64,000 nucleotides of DNA from Anoxybacter fermentans (GTDB taxonomy: Bacteria > Bacillota > Halanaerobiia > DY22613), in NCBI RefSeq assembly GCF_003991135.1, contig NZ_CP016379.1, forward strand, positions 1,922,001 through 1,986,000, in the 5' to 3' direction. How positions within the stretch are numbered: the stretch's first letter is position 1; each line of letters opens with the position of its first letter. This document shows, one piece after another, positions 29,360-64,000 of the stretch. The translations under genes and the position numbers were made by a program. The notes under the pieces were generated by a model. The model had not been told where the DNA came from and did not search any database. It saw only the letters and a list, made by a program, of their open reading frames with translations.

Positions 29360-30487
29360 TCATTTTAAATTATAGTGTTCATAATAGCTATTTTTTAAAT
29401 TTGAAATCCAAATCGAAAAAGAAACTGAACCACTGAAACCTACTAACACACCTACAGGACCACTTATTAATCCAGAACCGACGGTTATTATAACTCCTCC
29501 TCCAACATCAATAACAGTAAATCCAGCTTCTGCTATACTTTTATGAATTCTTTGGCTTATAGTTAGATTTGAATCAAGAATAATTTTATATTCATTATAA
29601 GCAAAATCTGTTATTGTAACTAAATAGCCAGCTTTTCTTAAAAATTTAAAAGTATCAACTTCTACTTTTACTGGTTCAATTATATCTCCATATACAGGGT
29701 CAAAACCAACAATCTTATACGTTGTACCAACAAATTTTCCTTTTTCGGCAATTATAGTACCAACCCTATCAAAAGCATTTGCCCCCAACGCTTTTGCTAT
29801 AATTGCATATAATTCGGTAAGTTCAGTCTTTATAGAATTAGATAAATCATAATCCAGGTAATTTAAATTTGAAACTTTTCTGCAAGAAGGCCATATATAT
29901 TCTTGCCACTTCTGTATATCTCCAGTTTCCTGTATTATTCTTTCAACAGCAATATAATAAGCATCAATGCTTATCTTTCCTTCTATATGCAATTCTACTA
30001 TTCTTTTTATATCTGGATTTTCTATTTCTGTATTATTCGCCTTAATTTGATTAAACGTATCCTTTAAATCTTCTTTTTCTTCTTCTGTTAGTCTATCATC
30101 TTCTTCAACAATTTTTTTGAGCCTTTCAATATCTTCATCAGTGATTTTCGAAGTTATTCCTCCAGTACCAGCTGTCAAATTTGCCATATGTCCAGTAGGA
30201 TCCACATATTTTAATGGATTCTGCAATACGTAGATATATAGATTTTGACTTAGTTGGTTAATCAGATTTCCTGGATAAACATCTTCTGTAATAAACCGCC
30301 CGGTCTCAGGATCATAATGCCTTGCTCCATAGTAATATAACCCTATTCCTATAACCTGCCTCTGCCCTGTAAATTTATACTTAGCATCTATAGCAAAATC
30401 TACTACACTTGTTCCCGGTTTATACAAATCCTCACCAAATGGCAGATAATCCTGTTCCCAGGCTACCTGTCCTTTACCATCTGTCAT
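29360..30487 (-). CDS. Orphan Rhs tip, class 2 (glycine-rich C terminus), unit G
   Basis: 375 residues: the Rhs stub (MTDGKGQVAWEQDYLPFGED to NPLKYVDPTGHM), a charged linker variant (KITDEDIERLKKIVEEDDRL), a helix-rich middle (GDIQKWQEYIWPSCRKVSNL; DRVGTIIAEKGKFVGTTYKI) and a C terminus rich in glycine and hydrophobic residues (FTVIDVGGGVIITVGSGLIS then GPVGVLVGFSGSVSFSIWIS). The end looks able to insert in a membrane. No enzyme motif was recognised. The stub uses GKGQVAWEQ and AIDAKYKF, the variant also seen in the longer fragment at 53341-55009. Confidence 0.75.
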   Translation of the reverse strand: MTDGKGQVAWEQDYLPFGEDLYKPGTSVVDFAIDAKYKFTGQRQVIGIGLYYYGARHYDPETGRFITEDVYPGNLINQLSQNLYIYVLQNPLKYVDPTGHMANLTAGTGGITSKITDEDIERLKKIVEEDDRLTEEEKEDLKDTFNQIKANNTEIENPDIKRIVELHIEGKISIDAYYIAVERIIQETGDIQKWQEYIWPSCRKVSNLNYLDYDLSNSIKTELTELYAIIAKALGANAFDRVGTIIAEKGKFVGTTYKIVGFDPVYGDIIEPVKVEVDTFKFLRKAGYLVTITDFAYNEYKIILDSNLTISQRIHKSIAEAGFTVIDVGGGVIITVGSGLISGPVGVLVGFSGSVSFSIWISNLKNSYYEHYNLK

Positions 30488-30910
30488 AAGTCGGGTTGAA
30501 CCAAGATTATCATGGTGGTAATATATAATTTCTGCATCACTTCCAACTATTCCTTCTATTCTCGAAATCTGTCTGCCATGAGCATAAATGAAACTTGCTT
30601 TTTTTACTTTTGTAAGATTATATTGAATGATAAACCTGCAAAAAGCTAATTTTTCGCTCCAAAAGAAATTTTTCGAACCATCTAAAGTTCGATTTCAGTC
30701 GAAATAAGGCTCCCTAATCAAAGGACCCTCCTGGCCCTTGATTAGCTCATCACATCCTCGTATATAATTAAATTAAGCAAAGTTTTATAGCATAAAACCT
30801 TATAAATCAAAGGTTTTCATGCTTCTAAAAATATTGTTAAAATTTTTGTTAAGGTAATTTTAAAACTAAATCTTTACAAATTAGGGTTCGTCCGGCATAA
30901 TTCTCAATAG

Positions 30911-31076
30911 GAATTAGGGGAAATACTACACATCCTTGTTGCACCTCTTTCAGGTGACTTCTTTCACAGATTGTATCCCCTACCCTGACAGGTACTTCTG
31001 ACTCGCAGTTTGTTTCTTTGAATTCTAATTCTGGCGAGGTTGTTGAACTTGTCAGGGATGCCAGGACCCCTAATTC
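30911..31076 (+). ncRNA. Candidate IS110 bridge RNA
   Basis: Two consecutive stem-loops precede the transposase. Loop 1 is closed by GGGG-AA-ATAC (30917-30926) with GTATCCCC (30973-30980). It contains CACATCCT (30929-30936), identical to the target bases 30751-30758, a hairpin CACCT/AGGTG, and TTTCACAG (30962-30969), whose TCACAG complements the target's CTGTGA. Loop 2 is closed by CCCTGACA (30983-30990) with TGTCAGGG (31049-31056). It contains CGCAGT (31004-31009), equal to the bases before the right-hand CT (32725-32730), a hairpin GAATT/AATTC, and CGAG (31035-31038), complementary to CTCG at the left donor end. GAATTAGGGG/CCCCTAATTC could form an outer stem. Confidence 0.75.
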
Positions 31077-31115
31077 CCCTAATTCAACAAAATACTTTCA
31101 TAGGAGGTAATTACA

Positions 31116-32543
31116 TTGTCTAACAAACTCTTTGTCGGTATTGATGTAAGCTTAAAAGAAAACCAGTTGCAATGCCTGGATGCTGATGGTAATTTTATCA
31201 GTAAATCAAAACGCTTTGCCAACAATTTGCCAGGCACTATGGATATGATCAACTATCTTAAATCTATCATGGACAAAGGAAATTTTGAATCACTCACCAT
31301 TGGTATGGAAGCTACATCTTCTTATTGGTTTCCCTTGTTCCATACTCTTGCTTCATCAAACGAACTTAAAAATTATTCTGTCGAAATACTGAGTCTTAAT
31401 CCTAAACTCATCAGTAATTTTCGTAAAGCTTATACTGACATGGATAAAAACGACCTTAAAGATTCTTTTGTCATTGCAGATCGCCTCCGTTTTGGCAGGT
31501 TGCCTGAATCACAAACAACTGATGCTAAATATCTAGCTCTACAACGCCTTACCAGATACCGCTTCTTTTTGTGCCAAACAAAAGCACAATTAAAAAATTA
31601 TACCTGTTCACTCCTGTTTCTGACCTTCAGTGAATGGAATCGGGTTAAACCTTTTTCCGATATGTTTGGTACCACAGCCAAAAATCTATTGAAAAAATTC
31701 CACTCTGCAAAAAAATTGGCCGAAGTACCTATCGATGAACTTAAAAACATGCTTGCTTCGTCCAGCAAAAATCATTTCCGGGATATTGAACAAAAATCTA
31801 TTCTGGTTAATCAAACTGCAAAACATTCATTCTCCATCCCTGACATCTTAGCTGAACAGATACACTTTATCATCAAACTAAACTTACAGCTATTGAATTT
31901 AATCGAACAACATATAGACCGTTTAAATAAAAAAATCTCAAAATTAATGAAAAAATTTAAAAACCCTTTGCTCTCAATACCTGGTATTGGACCTGTTCTG
32001 GCTGCTGGTATAATTGCTGAAATTGGCGACATCTCCCGATTCCCTGGTCAGGCTCAACTGGCCAAATATGCTGGTCTTACCTGGAGAAAAATTCAATCAG
32101 GCAACTTCACTGGCGATCTTACTCCCTTGACCAGAACTGGAAATGCTTATCTTCGCTATTACTTCATTCAAGCTGCCCAATCGATGATAAAACATAATTC
32201 TGAGTATCGTGAATATTATAAACGCAAGTTTAAAGAAACATCTCGCCATCCACATAAAAGAGCATTGACACTTACAGCTCGCAAACTAGTACGTTTAGTT
32301 TATGCTCTATTATCCAAAAACCAACTCTACCTTTCGCCAGAGGAAAGAAAAGAGCATAAACTTAGACAAAAGGAGGTGATTGAAAATCAGACTCCTGAAA
32401 TAGTAGAAGAAAAATCCAAAAAAATACCTGTCGCAGCACAGAAAAACTCAACAAAAAAAGTGAAGACACTAGGTGTTGCTGCAAAATACACACGAACTCA
32501 GCCAAAGCTGGAACACGCATTAGTTTACGCAGTCAACACGTAG
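31116..32543 (+). CDS. IS110-family transposase (DEDD recombinase)
   Basis: 475 residues from a TTG start preceded by TAGGAGGTAA. The N-terminal RuvC-like DEDD domain begins FVGIDVSLKENQLQCLDADG (first Asp), with GMEATSSYW and DKNDLKDSFVIADRLRFG carrying further acidic residues. The C-terminal domain has LLSIPGIGPVLAAGIIAEIG, FPGQAQLAKYAGLT and LTRTGNAYLRYYFIQAAQ, the IS116/IS110/IS902 signature including the conserved Ser region. The tail (about 420-475) is a basic, low-complexity extension. It would act with the upstream RNA to join the element's ends and insert at matching CT sites. Confidence 0.95.
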   Translation: MSNKLFVGIDVSLKENQLQCLDADGNFISKSKRFANNLPGTMDMINYLKSIMDKGNFESLTIGMEATSSYWFPLFHTLASSNELKNYSVEILSLNPKLISNFRKAYTDMDKNDLKDSFVIADRLRFGRLPESQTTDAKYLALQRLTRYRFFLCQTKAQLKNYTCSLLFLTFSEWNRVKPFSDMFGTTAKNLLKKFHSAKKLAEVPIDELKNMLASSSKNHFRDIEQKSILVNQTAKHSFSIPDILAEQIHFIIKLNLQLLNLIEQHIDRLNKKISKLMKKFKNPLLSIPGIGPVLAAGIIAEIGDISRFPGQAQLAKYAGLTWRKIQSGNFTGDLTPLTRTGNAYLRYYFIQAAQSMIKHNSEYREYYKRKFKETSRHPHKRALTLTARKLVRLVYALLSKNQLYLSPEERKEHKLRQKEVIENQTPEIVEEKSKKIPVAAQKNSTKKVKTLGVAAKYTRTQPKLEHALVYAVNT

Positions 32544-32595
32544 GTCTTCACTTACCTTAAAAATAACATTTTTTAGGTAAGTAGTCAAGACCTAC
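32540..32595 (+). terminator. Hairpin at the end of the IS110 transposase gene
   Basis: GTAGGTCTTCACTTACCT pairs with AGGTAAGTAGTCAAGACCTAC around an A/T loop. It starts at the stop codon; no T-run follows, so it may instead protect the mRNA or form part of the right end. Confidence 0.6.
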
Positions 32596-32944
32596 GAAGA
32601 CTTTTCAGACTAAAATTTTATTAATTCAGGTGGCTGAGAATATTGTGTTATTGGTGTGGCAAAATATATTATTTAAGGATAATATTTCTTTTGAATTTTT
32701 TCTCAATTACCTCTTGACTTTCACCGCAGTCTGTGATGAGGCCTTATTTCAACTGAAATCTCACTAAGATGGTTTGACGAAAAATTTCTATTTCGCTCAA
32801 AATTAGCTTTTTGCAGTTTTATCATTATATCACTATATAATCCTTTATACCTCACTATTACCAGTAAAGCCCTTGCTTATAGGTTGTCTTCACGCTGGTC
32901 AAGAAACAGAGCTTCTTTTGCTCAGCAAACATGCAGGCCGAATA

Positions 32945-33421: not shown

Positions 33422-34570
33422 TTAATCTCCTTTCTCTCCTTTTAAATAACTTCTAATACTATAATCCAAATCTCTTAACGTTCCTCTATATGCAGGAATA
33501 TCATTGGTAAGCCCAGTAAAATTAAATATAAGTTTTCCTTTACTTATTAAGCTACCTGGAAATGGTAATATCTTTTCTCTAAATCCATATCGTACGTTCT
33601 TGATTAGCTCTCCACCTTTTTTAAGTCGATAATATTCCCTTATTTCAGAAACCGCTGACATTGTCCCGTAAAAACTTATACAAAAGTCAACACCTAAATA
33701 GATAATTTCACCTTTTGAACCAAATATTGTCTTGTATTTTTCTCGTAATTGATTAGGTACTTCTCCACCACTTGAAAAAGCTTTACGCATTGTTGCAAAA
33801 CCTTGTGTAAAATTAAAAGCACCATGAACCAAAATATACCCTCCAATACCTTTTGTAACTAAAGTAGCATCAGGAGTTAGAATCAAAACACCTCCAGTAA
33901 CCATTTGACCAACTCCAGAAAATAAAATTACAGTTCCATCAGCCAAAGCTGACCAATTTATATCTGCATTCCATTCTGTATTTTTGTCCTCTAATTCTCT
34001 TGCAACTCTTTCATAAGCGATAAGATATGCATCATAAGAAATTTTACCCTCTAAATATAAATTCGTTAATCTCTCCAGATCTGGTTGGTCTATAATTTGT
34101 GCATTTGATTTCTTTAAATTTCTATTAATATTGCTAAATGTATTATTTAAATCCTGCTTTTCTTCTGCAGTTAATCTGTCATCATTATTAACAATCTCTT
34201 TTAACCGCTCAATATCTCTATCGGTTAACTCTGAAGTTATTCCTCCAGTGCCAGCTGTCAAATTCGCCATATACCCCAAAGGATCCACATATTTTAATGG
34301 ATTCTGCAATACGTAGATATATAGATTCTGACTTAGTTGGTTAATCAGATTTCCTGGATAAACATCTTCTGTAATAAATCGCCCGATCTCAGGATCATAA
34401 TACCTTGCTCCATAGTAATATAATCCTATTCCTACAACCTGTCTCTGCCCTGTAAATTTATACCTGGTCTCTACTTCAAAATTTACAATACTTGTTCCTG
34501 GTTTATACAGGTCCTCACCAAATGGCAGATAATCCTGTTCCCAGACTACCTTACCTGTTCCATTTGACAT
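33422..34570 (-). CDS. Orphan Rhs tip, class 1 (DUF4225-like), unit H
   Basis: Intact 382-residue frame from MSNGTGKVVWEQDYLPFGED. The boundary reads NPLKYVDPLGYM, with Leu in place of the usual Ser. The first hydrophobic helix is DGTVILFSGVGQMVTGGVLI, the second GGYILVHGAFNFTQGFATM; the tail ends LRDLDYSIRSYLKGEKGD. From KAFSSGGEVPNQLREKYKTI onward it equals the tip of the full-length rhs almost exactly, while the first helix differs. A possible donor or former expressed tip. Confidence 0.8.
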   Translation of the reverse strand: MSNGTGKVVWEQDYLPFGEDLYKPGTSIVNFEVETRYKFTGQRQVVGIGLYYYGARYYDPEIGRFITEDVYPGNLINQLSQNLYIYVLQNPLKYVDPLGYMANLTAGTGGITSELTDRDIERLKEIVNNDDRLTAEEKQDLNNTFSNINRNLKKSNAQIIDQPDLERLTNLYLEGKISYDAYLIAYERVARELEDKNTEWNADINWSALADGTVILFSGVGQMVTGGVLILTPDATLVTKGIGGYILVHGAFNFTQGFATMRKAFSSGGEVPNQLREKYKTIFGSKGEIIYLGVDFCISFYGTMSAVSEIREYYRLKKGGELIKNVRYGFREKILPFPGSLISKGKLIFNFTGLTNDIPAYRGTLRDLDYSIRSYLKGEKGD

Positions 34571-36854: not shown

Positions 36855-37057
36855 CTGCAAAAAGCTAATTTTTCGCTCCAAAAGAAATTTTTCGAACCAT
36901 CTAAAGTTCGATTTCAGTCGAAATAAGGCTCCCTAATCAAAGGGCCCTCCTGGCCCTTGATTAGCTCATCACATCCTGTGATGAGGCCTTATTTCGACCT
37001 CTCACTAAGATGGTTTAACGAAAAATTTCTATGTCGCTCAAAATTAGCTTTTTGCAG
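36855..37057. repeat. Three-way-junction palindrome, copy 8
   Basis: Slightly short: TGAAAT is missing after TTATTTCGAC in the right arm. Central loop CACATCC, so it keeps the IS110 target. Confidence 0.88.
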
Positions 37058-37213
37058 TTTAATCATATATAATAAATATTTACCAGCTAATTAAGTAAAA
37101 CTATTGAACATTTTTTATTCAAAAATACTTGGCACTCACAAGTTTTAACCAGTACTTATAATATATTTTTGCCGAAATATGCATTTTTATATTTCCAAAC
37201 ATACTACTAAATA

Positions 37214-60212: not shown

Positions 60213-63200
60213 TTAATCTCCTTTCTCTTCTTTTAAATAACTTCTAATACTATAATCCAAATCTCTTAACGTTCCTCTATATGCAGGAATATCATTGGTA
60301 AGCCCTACAAAATTAAATATAAGTTTTCCTTTACTTATTAAGCTACCTGGAAATGGTAATATCTTCTCTCCAAATCCATATCGCACGTTCTTTATTAACA
60401 CACCACCTTTTTTAAGTCGATAATATTCCCTTATTTCGGAAACTGCTGACATCGTCCCGTAAAAACTTATACAAAAGTCAACACCTAAATAGATAATTTC
60501 ACCTTTTGAGCCAAATATTGTCTTGTATTTTTCTTGTAATTGGTTAGGTACTTCTCCACCACTTGAAAAAGCTTTACGTATTGTTGCAAAACCTTGTGTA
60601 AAATTAAAAGCACCATGAACTAAAATATACCCTCCAATAACTTTTGTAACGGTAGCATCAGGAACTGCAATTAAACTAACTCCAGTAGCTACTTGACCCA
60701 GTCCAGAAATTAAAATTACAGTTCCATCAGCCAAAGCTAACCAATTTATATCTACATTCCACTCTCTATTCTTATCCTTTAATTCTCCTGCAACTCTTTC
60801 ATAAGCGATAAGATATGCATCATAAGAAATTTTACCCTCTAAATATAAATTCGTTAATCTCGCCAGATCTGGATGGTCTATAATTTGTGCATTTGATTTC
60901 TTTAAATTTCTATTAATATTGCTAAATGTATTATTTAAATCCCGCTTTTCTTCTGCAGTTAATCTGTCATCATCATTAACAATCTCTTTTAACCGCTCAA
61001 TATCTCTATCTGTTAACTCTGAAGTTATTCCTCCAGTGCCAGCTGTCAAATTCGCCATATGTCCCATCGGATCAATATATTTTAACGGATTCTGTAATAC
61101 GTAGATATATAGATTCTGACTTAGCGGGTTAATCAGATTTCCTGGATAAACATCTTCTGTAATAAACCGTCCGATCTCAGAATCATAATATCTTGCTCCA
61201 TAGTAATATAAACCTATTCCTATAACCTGCCTCTGCCCTGTAAATTTATACCTGGTCTCTACTTCAAAATCCACCACACTTGTTCCAGGCTTATGCAAGT
61301 CTTCACCAAATGGCAGATAATCCTGTTCCCAGATTACCTTACCTGTTCCATCTGTCATAAATCGGGTTGAACCAAGATTATCATGGTGGTAATAGTAAAC
61401 TTCGGCATCACTTCCTACTATTCCTTCTACTTTCGCTATTGGACGGTCAAATGCATAAATATAAGAAATCTTCTTACCTTCTGAAATGTTATCTTCATAA
61501 ATTACCTTACCTGCATAATTGAATACATAATTGATATTGCCTTCCTCTTCTGTTTCAGAGCGAATCCTATTACCATCTGCATCATAGATAAACTTAGCCT
61601 TAAGTTTGCCATTCCGATATACTGCCTTTAACCTGTTTCTTACCGTGTACTCATACCGCCAATATTCAACATCAAAACCTTCCTTGATAAATTCTACACT
61701 TCCATCTGCTTTTACTGTAAACTGATTGCCTTTCTCAATTAAGTTGCCATTTTCATCATATACATAATAGAAGGTCTCTCCTGTTCCATTGTTGGTCATC
61801 TTCTTCAATCGATTACTGCCTTCATAGTACTCATAAGTTATCTCTTCTGTATTGCCAACAATAGTCCTCTTAGCTGTCCTGTTTCCTCCAGCATCATAAT
61901 CATACTCCAAACGGGCTCCATCTGATCTCTGATAAATCTTAACCATATTACGCAAGTCACCATAAAATTCTGACTTATCAACAAAGCCAAAGTACATATC
62001 ACGGTCATCAAATTTAGAGTGAATCTTAAATGCCAGCGCTTCTACCGGTTCCTCAAATATAATTGTTATATCTCCATCTTCATCTTTCTCAAAATACCAT
62101 TGATCTTCAGGTAACTTATAGAAAGTAAAGTTGTCGGGACTATAGTAAACAGTTAATGTATTCTTTTCAACCCGATGTTCAAGTACTTCTGGTGCAGGCT
62201 TTAATTCTATCTTTCCTATAGAAGCTTTTTCAACTAAAACAACACCAATACTGTTAGCCTTATAATCAAACTTAACCCAATAATTCTCCGGCTCAACTAG
62301 ACTTAATGTTCCAAATATATCCTCTTCTGCTACTCCAAAAATACCTGTCCTCTCTCCATAGAAAGTCCCTTCTACCTCAGCGACTGTCAATCTATCTAAT
62401 TTATCATAGTAATAATAGTTGGTGTTTCCTGTAATATGGTTGGTTCTGCTCTCCACATTGTTATTACCATCATAGGCATAACTTATATCAAAAGGTGTCT
62501 TTAACTGCCCCTCATCTACAGTTATTACTTTTATACTCTTAACTCTTGAATTAGCATCAGGAGTAATCTCAGTATTGGTTCCATTATTATATCTAATTCC
62601 TGCCAAAAATCCATTATCAGCATAGGTAAATGCTGGGTTATCCACTGTTCCATCAGCGAAGCCTGTTACACCTACTAACTGATTCAACTTATTATATTTA
62701 TACTCAACCCAGATATTGCTCTCAGGATATTTGATAAATCGCAGATTTCCAACTTTGTCATACCTATAACCAGTGACATAAATCTTACCTGCAATTATTC
62801 TGCTCTCCTCAATAATCCGACCTAATGGGTCATATTCACTTAAGATAACACTATCATTATCTCTTGCTTCCAATCTGTTACCTTCTTTATCATATCTATA
62901 AGTAATTGTATCTACAATATTACCAGCATTATCTACATAATCAATCTGAATAGGCAAATAATTTTTAAGATAGGTATATACTGTCTTCTGGCCTTTCCTA
63001 TCTATCTTCTCCTTTAGATTACCTACACCATCATAGCTGTATTTGATTACTCCACCCTCTGGTCTAATCTCCCTGACCAGCCTATCTAGTTGATCGTAAA
63101 TATATCTGGTTGTTACTCCATTGGGTAATACTTTTTTCATCAGATTACCATGAGGATCATAATAGTAAGATGTAATACCACCTTCTGCGTCTATCACTTT

Positions 63201-64000
63201 TATCAATTGATTCTGACTATTATATCTATATTCAGTTTCATTGAATCTGCCATCTATCTCTTTGATCTTATTTCCCACATTATCATAAAAATATGTCCGT
63301 TCACTACCGTCCGGATAAATAATATATTTCAATCTGTACAGATCATCATACTCAAACCGGGTAACATTACCTGACGGGTCTTTAACTTCGGTTTTGTTAC
63401 CAACTTTATCATAACTATAACCAGTAACATATTCTCTACCTTTCTCATCAAAAATAATCTCCTTTGAAAGCCAGTATTGTGGAGTGTATCTATATTCTAT
63501 TTTCTGCCCCTCAGAATTGATAACTTCAACTTTATTGCCTACTTTATCATACCTGTATCGTGTTACATATTCTCCAGCTGAACTACCATAAGTGATTGTC
63601 CTGCTCTCTTCAATCACCCGGCCTAATCTATCATATTTAATCTTTAACGTATAATCAGGATCAATCTTATAATATGGCACCTCACTATGTTCATAAATCT
63701 CATCTGCAAAGAGAATTACTGTATCACTACCACCAGAAGATACATGTTTTACCCCTCCTGGAGTTGTTACTGATACCCTGTTACCAATAATGTCATAAGT
63801 GTAGTATGTGATCTGGTCATTATCTCCGGTCTCATTACTTACATCCTCTCCATTCCTTAAAAGACCATTTACTACTGTTTCTGCTACTACCCAGCCACGG
63901 GCATTGTACATTTTCTGGATAATGTTTCCTTCCGTATCTACTGTCTTAATCAGTTTCCCATTTCTATCATAATAGTGATATGTTGTATTACCTGATGGAT
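60213..64000 (-). CDS. Rhs/YD-repeat toxin, C-terminal 1260 residues (5' part beyond window)
   Basis: Large secreted or surface Rhs protein. The frame is open to the window edge (DPSGNTTYHYYDRNGKLIKT), so the start lies outside. Many YD repeats (for example YDKVGNKTEVKDPSGNVTRF, YDPHGNLMKKVLPNGVTTRY) would form the hollow shell enclosing the toxin. About residues 500-640 of the visible part form an inserted beta-rich, discoidin-like domain (VEGTFYGERTGIFGVAEEDI to FGFVDKSEFYGDLRN). The core ends at GRFITEDVYPGN and NPLKYIDPMGHM, the usual cleavage boundary. The tip (~290 residues) has the NLTAGTGG linker, helices ALADGTVILISGLGQVATGV and GGYILVHGAFNFTQGFATI, and ends SYLKEEKGD; it resembles membrane-active DUF4225 tips. 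Confidence 0.9.
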   Translation of the reverse strand, partial: PSGNTTYHYYDRNGKLIKTVDTEGNIIQKMYNARGWVVAETVVNGLLRNGEDVSNETGDNDQITYYTYDIIGNRVSVTTPGGVKHVSSGGSDTVILFADEIYEHSEVPYYKIDPDYTLKIKYDRLGRVIEESRTITYGSSAGEYVTRYRYDKVGNKVEVINSEGQKIEYRYTPQYWLSKEIIFDEKGREYVTGYSYDKVGNKTEVKDPSGNVTRFEYDDLYRLKYIIYPDGSERTYFYDNVGNKIKEIDGRFNETEYRYNSQNQLIKVIDAEGGITSYYYDPHGNLMKKVLPNGVTTRYIYDQLDRLVREIRPEGGVIKYSYDGVGNLKEKIDRKGQKTVYTYLKNYLPIQIDYVDNAGNIVDTITYRYDKEGNRLEARDNDSVILSEYDPLGRIIEESRIIAGKIYVTGYRYDKVGNLRFIKYPESNIWVEYKYNKLNQLVGVTGFADGTVDNPAFTYADNGFLAGIRYNNGTNTEITPDANSRVKSIKVITVDEGQLKTPFDISYAYDGNNNVESRTNHITGNTNYYYYDKLDRLTVAEVEGTFYGERTGIFGVAEEDIFGTLSLVEPENYWVKFDYKANSIGVVLVEKASIGKIELKPAPEVLEHRVEKNTLTVYYSPDNFTFYKLPEDQWYFEKDEDGDITIIFEEPVEALAFKIHSKFDDRDMYFGFVDKSEFYGDLRNMVKIYQRSDGARLEYDYDAGGNRTAKRTIVGNTEEITYEYYEGSNRLKKMTNNGTGETFYYVYDENGNLIEKGNQFTVKADGSVEFIKEGFDVEYWRYEYTVRNRLKAVYRNGKLKAKFIYDADGNRIRSETEEEGNINYVFNYAGKVIYEDNISEGKKISYIYAFDRPIAKVEGIVGSDAEVYYYHHDNLGSTRFMTDGTGKVIWEQDYLPFGEDLHKPGTSVVDFEVETRYKFTGQRQVIGIGLYYYGARYYDSEIGRFITEDVYPGNLINPLSQNLYIYVLQNPLKYIDPMGHMANLTAGTGGITSELTDRDIERLKEIVNDDDRLTAEEKRDLNNTFSNINRNLKKSNAQIIDHPDLARLTNLYLEGKISYDAYLIAYERVAGELKDKNREWNVDINWLALADGTVILISGLGQVATGVSLIAVPDATVTKVIGGYILVHGAFNFTQGFATIRKAFSSGGEVPNQLQEKYKTIFGSKGEIIYLGVDFCISFYGTMSAVSEIREYYRLKKGGVLIKNVRYGFGEKILPFPGSLISKGKLIFNFVGLTNDIPAYRGTLRDLDYSIRSYLKEEKGD

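What the first reader, a model, noticed from the sequence alone, without database searches (positions are those of the whole stretch)
30759..32730. IS110 element whose predicted bridge-RNA guides match the palindrome loop it sits in
Seen: the element is flanked by CT and splits the central hairpin CATCACATCCT/CTGTGATGAG. In its 5' noncoding region, a first stem-loop contains CACATCCT, identical to all 8 bases of the left target including the core, and TCACAG, complementary to CTGTGA on the right. A second loop contains CGCAGT, equal to the right end of the element before the core, and CGAG, complementary to the left donor end with the core. Known: IS110-group recombinases use such a two-loop bridge RNA with a CT core, and IS621 targets repetitive palindromes. 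The match of both target guides to an actual insertion site makes this a testable new example.
Basis: partly seen in the sequence, partly recalled or inferred. Interest (0 to 1): 0.9.

Follow-up and report, generated by a model that had tools for sequence, protein, structure and literature searches.

The report
Jumping gene retargeted to genomic hairpins
A bacterial jumping gene carries an RNA guide that spells out the tip of a hairpin repeated hundreds of times in its host chromosome, and it sits exactly there, while older copies and relatives sit at ribosome-binding sites with other guides, so the guide appears to have been rewritten naturally in this lineage.

Summary
Confirmed. Window 30759-32732 is an IS110-group insertion sequence between CT cores in the palindrome CTCATCACATC-CT-GTGATGAG. 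Its 5' noncoding region folds into two loops. The first carries CACATCCT (8/8 of the left target) and UCACAG (6/6 of the right target); the second carries CGCAGU and CGAG (donor ends). Guides covary with targets and donor ends across about 30-80 relatives per test, far above shuffled pairings. A second full copy (4 differences in 1974 bp) and two remnants lie in the same palindrome. Of 7,416 CT sites in the window, only the 16 palindrome copies match the guides within one mismatch.

New here: relatives (44 of 64 sites) sit at Shine-Dalgarno sequences of opposite-strand genes, and older diverged copies in this genome have Shine-Dalgarno-type flanks. The best-preserved older copy differs from the window copy mainly in the guides (7/10 guide versus 20/143 scaffold positions). 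The lineage was probably retargeted from Shine-Dalgarno sites to a hairpin repeat.

The mechanism is the known bridge-RNA one, and natural re-direction in this family is published, so this is a clear new member of a known kind. Activity was not tested.

The parts
30759..32732 (+). IS110-group insertion sequence, 1974-bp unit including one CT core
   Evidence: Boundaries from the second copy and from empty palindromes
31116..32543 (+). DEDD recombinase gene, 475 aa, TTG start
   Evidence: PF01548 5e-27 and PF02371 2e-25; D10, E65, D113, D116, S328 invariant in 10 relatives and aligned with the IS621 active site
30757..30758 (+). left CT core
   Evidence: direct reading; same in second copy
32731..32732 (+). 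right CT core
   Evidence: direct reading; conserved right end TTGAC..ACCG....CT in the clade
30746..30758 (+). left half of the target palindrome with core (CTCATCACATCCT)
32733..32740 (+). right half of the target palindrome (GTGATGAG)
30636..30758 (.). left part of the interrupted ~205-bp Y-shaped hairpin repeat
   Evidence: inverted repeats; genome-wide copies; fold of an empty copy
32733..32816 (.). right part of the interrupted hairpin repeat
30905..31080 (+). predicted bridge RNA (ends not mapped)
   Evidence: fold; conserved in L017, L018, L084, L087
30917..30980 (+). target-binding stem-loop
30929..30936 (+). left target guide CACATCCT
   Evidence: 8/8 match to left target; covariation in relatives
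30964..30969 (+). right target guide UCACAG
   Evidence: 6/6 complement of right target CTGTGA; covariation in relatives
30970..30971 (+). predicted handshake guide AU, can pair with donor bases GT before the core (A-T, U-G wobble)
   Evidence: covariation in 31 elements; concept from PMC11208158
30983..31057 (+). donor-binding stem-loop
31004..31009 (+). left donor guide CGCAGU, equal to the right end of the element before the core
   Evidence: anchored tetramer test 50 of 60 elements against 4.4 expected
31035..31038 (+). right donor guide CGAG, complement of core plus left end (CTCG)
   Evidence: direct reading; not tested statistically
30873..30901 (+). possible internal promoter TTTACA-17-CATAAT just upstream of the RNA
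   Evidence: consensus scan; same arrangement in L017, L084, L087
32714..32719 (+). -35 box TTGACT at the right end; with TATAAT at 30763-30768 it would form a promoter (spacer 17) when the ends join
   Evidence: junction promoters of IS110 circles in PMC11208160
30763..30768 (+). -10 box TATAAT at the left end (joined-end promoter)

Best explanation
An IS110-group insertion sequence that moves by bridge-RNA-guided recombination. It would excise as a circle; joining the ends makes a promoter (TTGACT-17-TATAAT), and a second possible promoter lies just upstream of the RNA. The RNA's first loop pairs with CACATC-CT-GTGA, the tip of a chromosomal hairpin repeat; its second loop pairs with the joined ends of the element; the DEDD recombinase exchanges strands at the CT cores. 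The guides specify a sequence found in the window only in this repeat, which offers dozens of exact and hundreds of near-exact sites in the genome. The lineage probably used to target Shine-Dalgarno sequences (left guide ending CCTCCT) and was retargeted by changes in both target guides. Shown by sequence: element, boundaries, guide matches, covariation, copies and relatives. Inferred: RNA expression, circle formation, recombination and the direction of retargeting.
For: Recombinase domains and active-site residues. Fold with guides in two internal loops. Left target guide covaries with targets: 7.03 against 6.45 +/- 0.08, above all 5,000 shuffles; anchored p about 1.5e-4, 7e-4 without the window element. 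Right target guide p about 5e-5 with or without the window element. Donor guide exact in 50 of 60 elements against 4.4 expected. Handshake bases p about 5e-5. Second full copy and two remnants in the same palindrome. Guides fit only the palindromes in the window and 69 sites in the genome against 0 control. Window copy versus L017: guides 7/10 changed, scaffold 20/143; versus L018: 0/10 and 9/142. Relatives at Shine-Dalgarno sites: 44 of 64; ATG only 36 of 64 against 5.5% control.
Against: No expression or activity data. One fold of a shorter stretch shows a competing end-to-end stem. The donor guide does not match the C of the core (TT where the end has CT). The two full copies are nearly identical, so they may not be fully independent insertions. 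Relatives share ancestry, so the shuffle p-values are approximate. The oldest copies are decayed, and in L021-L023 the guide region is lost or hard to read.
Confidence: 0.92

Rival explanations
1. The recombinase recognises the hairpin or cruciform shape of the repeat by protein contacts, and the resemblance of the RNA to the target is incidental.
For: The target is the tip of a very stable hairpin, and IS110-type enzymes are related to Holliday-junction resolvases (own knowledge).
Against: Guides and targets covary across relatives whose Shine-Dalgarno sites are no such repeat. Insertion is always at the same base of an asymmetric tip. The guides changed together with the target class within this genome.
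Confidence: 0.03
2. The two full copies come from one insertion, spread by recombination between repeat arms, so the repeated palindrome location is not independent evidence.
For: Only 4 differences in 1974 bp, and arms of about 100 bp are shared.
Against: The right arms of the two sites are only 85% alike, and the left arm of the second copy is at least as close to some empty repeats as to the window site. Unique flanks differ. Two older remnants, 86-90% identical, lie in further palindromes.
Confidence: 0.12
3. The left guide is only a drifted Shine-Dalgarno guide and the match to the palindrome is luck.
For: Relative L087 carries CACCTCCT, one base from the window's left guide, and many palindromes read CACCTCCT.
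Against: The right guide changed too (TTTAAG in L084 and L087, TCACAG here) to fit the palindrome's right half. L018 keeps identical guides on a diverged scaffold, and only palindromes fit the guides in the window.
Confidence: 0.02

Closest known systems
IS621 (IS110 group) and its bridge RNA (PMC11208160, PMC11208158)
   Same: DEDD RuvC plus Tnp domains, CT core, long left noncoding end, two guide loops with the same strand logic, handshake bases, joined-end promoter, insertion into repeated extragenic palindromes
   Different: Distant in sequence (phmmer E 2e-12); 475 aa instead of 326-328; longer leader with a possible internal promoter; different palindrome; the clade's usual target is a Shine-Dalgarno sequence
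ISEc11 and ISXne4 natural re-direction (seekRNA paper, PMC11187229)
   Same: Related elements whose guide segments differ and match different target sites: naturally reprogrammed
   Different: Those are IS1111-type in different species; here old and new guides and sites of one IS110-type lineage lie in one chromosome
ISPpu10 and other IS elements of repetitive extragenic palindromes (Tobes and Pareja 2006, Ramos-Gonzalez 2006; seen as references)
   Same: Insertion into repetitive extragenic palindromes
   Different: A different, much longer Y-shaped repeat of about 205 bp with an asymmetric TCC tip
IS900 (IS110 family; recalled, source not found in the library)
   Same: From own knowledge, inserts at translation start signals on the opposite strand, as most relatives here do
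   Different: Not compared in sequence here; the window element no longer uses such sites

Membership tests
IS110 family, IS110 group | DEDD RuvC-like N-terminal domain and Transposase_20 C-terminal domain | tested here: met
   PF01548 and PF02371 well above cut-offs
IS110 family, IS110 group | Catalytic D, E, D, D and S residues | tested here: met
   D10, E65, D113, D116, S328 invariant in ten relatives and aligned with IS621
IS110 family, IS110 group | Left noncoding end longer than the right, carrying the RNA | tested here: met
   357 bp against 189 bp; predicted RNA in the left end
IS110 family, IS110 group | Short core shared by target and donor, no longer target duplication | tested here: met
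   CT on both sides; empty palindromes have one CT
Bridge-RNA systems (IS621 type) | Two internal loops whose 5' sides equal the top strand and 3' sides complement it | tested here: met
   target and left donor guides supported by covariation
Bridge-RNA systems (IS621 type) | Promoter formed by the joined ends | tested here: inconclusive
   TTGACT-17-TATAAT present in the joined sequence; activity not testable
Bridge-RNA systems (IS621 type) | RNA expressed and bound by the recombinase; guided recombination | not testable with these tools
   needs bench work
Bridge-RNA systems (IS621 type) | Match to a bridge-RNA covariance model | tested here: inconclusive
   No Rfam match; the published IS621 model was not available and none was built here

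The most novel reading that the evidence does not exclude
One insertion-sequence lineage switched, inside one chromosome, from Shine-Dalgarno sites to a hairpin repeat by rewriting both target guides. The hairpin tip, often CACCTCCTG, itself contains the old CCTCCT target and could have been the stepping stone. Fossil copies record the order: copies at least 86% identical to the window copy lie in the palindrome, those at most 84% identical have Shine-Dalgarno-type flanks.
Probability: 0.55. Interest if true: 0.5.

Novelty: new member of a known kind. Interest (0 to 1): 0.42.

Why it matters
Bridge recombinases are being developed as programmable tools. A lineage in which evolution reprogrammed the RNA, with old and new guides and targets still readable in one genome, shows which guide changes the natural scaffold tolerates and how such elements find sites that spare genes. 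It also adds a clade of recombinases of about 400-475 aa, with many named members, in which guides and targets can be read directly.

Tried and rejected
The first genome-contig scan with the single protein found nothing; the alignment scan gave 80 loci. Rfam gave nothing. The first pattern-based anchoring of guides mis-assigned several elements; the revised rule still mis-assigns some, which should dilute rather than create the signal. In the handshake test elements with visibly wrong anchors were left out by inspection and five were re-anchored by hand, so that p-value is approximate. A 12-sequence alignment of the target loop (A3) was too poorly aligned at the right guide to justify a covariance model. 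RNAalifold on five close members gave a different pairing of the first loop from the single-sequence fold and little covariation, since the five are very similar. Batch folding of single loops stopped on an error partway and showed the open two-sided loop clearly for the window element but not for all members. A sliding match of the left donor guide was too noisy; the anchored tetramer test was decisive. Paper searches for IS110 elements at Shine-Dalgarno sites found no direct report in the held library.

Full report
What is there. The window lies in an unnamed single-contig genome of 3,557,532 bp. Between two CT dinucleotides at 30757-30758 and 32731-32732 sits a 1974-bp unit with one long reading frame, 31116-32543. 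It matches Pfam PF01548 (5e-27) and PF02371 (2e-25), the two domains of IS110 recombinases. The residues known to be catalytic in IS621 (D11, E60, D102, D105, S241; PMC11208158) correspond to D10, E65, D113, D116 and S328, invariant in ten relatives. Solved relatives are ISCro4 and IS621. The empty site can be read from intact copies in the same window: CTCATCACATCCTGTGATGAG.

The RNA. The left noncoding end is 357 bp. The stretch 30885-31090 folds as a short hairpin followed by two stem-loops with internal loops, the order described for IS621 (PMC11208160). In the first loop the 5' side holds CACATCCT (30929-30936), identical to the left target with core, and the 3' side holds UCACAG (30964-30969), complementary to the right target with core. 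In the second loop CGCAGU (31004-31009) equals the right end of the element and CGAG (31035-31038) complements the left end with core. The two bases after the right target guide, AU, can pair with the two donor bases before the core (one pair a wobble), as the handshake model of PMC11208158 predicts.

Is it chance? Two kinds of test say no. First, specificity: of 7,416 CT sites in the window on both strands, four fit all ten non-core guide bases and twelve fit with one mismatch; all sixteen are copies of the palindrome, and a single further site has two mismatches. In the genome CACATCCTGTGA occurs 69 times and the reversed control never. Second, covariation. I gathered relatives from related genomes and from named genome contigs and tested guide against site by shuffling partners. 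Left target guide: mean best match 7.03 of 9 against 6.45 +/- 0.08, none of 5,000 shuffles as high; anchored version p about 1.5e-4, and 7e-4 without the window element. Right target guide: 2.04 of 4 against 1.46 +/- 0.12, p about 5e-5, and the same without the window element. Left donor guide: exact tetramer in 50 of 60 elements against 4.4 expected, maximum 13 in 10,000 shuffles. Handshake bases: 1.61 of 2 against 0.98, p about 5e-5. Related elements are not independent draws, so these p-values are approximate.

Other copies in the same genome. A second full copy at 1825653-1827626 differs at four positions and sits in another copy of the palindrome with different outer flanks. A deleted remnant (L018, 90% identical) has the same guides and lies in the same kind of repeat; a right-end remnant (L019, 86%) is followed by the right half of the palindrome. 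More diverged copies (L017 84%; pieces of L020-L023 at about 69-78%) have left flanks of Shine-Dalgarno type, such as ATACTCCCCCT, TACTTCCTCCT and AAAACCTCCT, most of them just upstream of a start codon read on the other strand; L022 and L023 have similar flanks and may be one insertion duplicated. L017's guide reads ATACTCCCC, its own site apart from one missing C. Between the window copy and L017, 7 of 10 non-core guide positions differ but only 20 of 143 scaffold positions (Fisher p = 2e-4); between the window copy and L018, 0 of 10 and 9 of 142. Divergence is thus concentrated in the guides when the target class differs.

The clade. In relatives the left flank is usually a reversed Shine-Dalgarno sequence. 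In 44 of 64 insertions an open reading frame starts 9-18 nt from the core on the opposite strand; counting ATG only, 36 of 64 against 5.5% at control positions. The nearest relatives, 64% identical in protein (L084, L087), carry CCTCCTCCT and ACACCTCCT as left guides and TTTAAG as right guide. The window element is the exception in the set. A plausible path is that palindromes reading CACCTCCTG contain the old CCTCCT target, so that one left-guide base (C to A) and a rewritten right guide complete the switch. The direction of change is inferred from divergence and from the relatives' habit, not proven.

The target. The palindrome is one of two apical hairpins of a ~205-bp Y-shaped repeat (DNA fold -59.7 kcal/mol, z = -13.6). 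About 317 sites match CTCATCACNTCCTGTGATGAG within two mismatches. Related repeats of 67-77% identity (full-length or nearly so) occur in a few genomes of the same class. Close relatives of the RNA region were not found outside this genome among 60 searched, apart from one 26-bp marginal hit.

How it works. Most likely as IS621 does: excision as a circle, RNA made from the joined-end promoter TTGACT-17-TATAAT and perhaps from TTTACA-17-CATAAT at 30873-30901, pairing of one loop with the hairpin tip and of the other with the joined ends, and strand exchange at CT. Expression, circles and recombination are not shown here.

Known or new. Bridge RNAs, CT cores and palindrome targets (PMC11208160) and natural re-direction (ISEc11 and ISXne4, PMC11187229) are published. 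Insertion at ribosome-binding sites I recall for IS900, but I did not find the source in the library. This is therefore a new member of a known kind; its particular value is that both target types and both guide types of one lineage are preserved in one chromosome.

Noticed in passing
window about 5000-60000; minus-strand ORFs such as 29360-30487 and 33422-34570, long ORF 60213-63911: An array of Rhs-tip-like ORFs sharing a start motif (WEQDYLPFGEDLYKPG) with variable ends, spaced about 2 kb, with a copy of the 205-bp Y-shaped hairpin repeat in most gaps; the layout recalls gene-cassette arrays, though the repeat is also spread genome-wide.
   Followed up: partly
window 36860-37080 and about 317 genome sites: Very stable Y-shaped ~205-bp hairpin repeat ending in CTGCAAAAAGC / GCTTTTTGCAG, diverged relatives in a few genomes of the class. 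Origin and function unknown.
   Followed up: partly
L036-L163 (relatives): Most members of this IS110 clade insert at Shine-Dalgarno sequences of genes on the opposite strand, leaving AGGAGG and the start codon intact.
   Followed up: yes
L070 against L064-L068 (genome G127): Within one genome, one copy has left guide GTCACTCCT and target TTCACTCCT while its siblings have TCCTCCT guides and mostly CCTCCT targets: a second natural retargeting.
   Followed up: partly
window 30873-30901; also L017, L084, L087: Promoter-like TTTACA-17-CATAAT just upstream of the RNA, so the RNA might be made from the integrated element as well as from the circle.
   Followed up: partly
L087 upstream flank: This relative sits inside an apparent CRISPR array (repeat GTTTCAATCCCTTATAGGTAGGCTAAAAAC), next to CCTCCT in what looks like a spacer.
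   Followed up: no
L030, L031, L032 (genome 2491365, 1775646, 3227878): Three more distant IS110-type genes, 27-30% identical, elsewhere in the same genome; two have in-frame stops.
   Followed up: no
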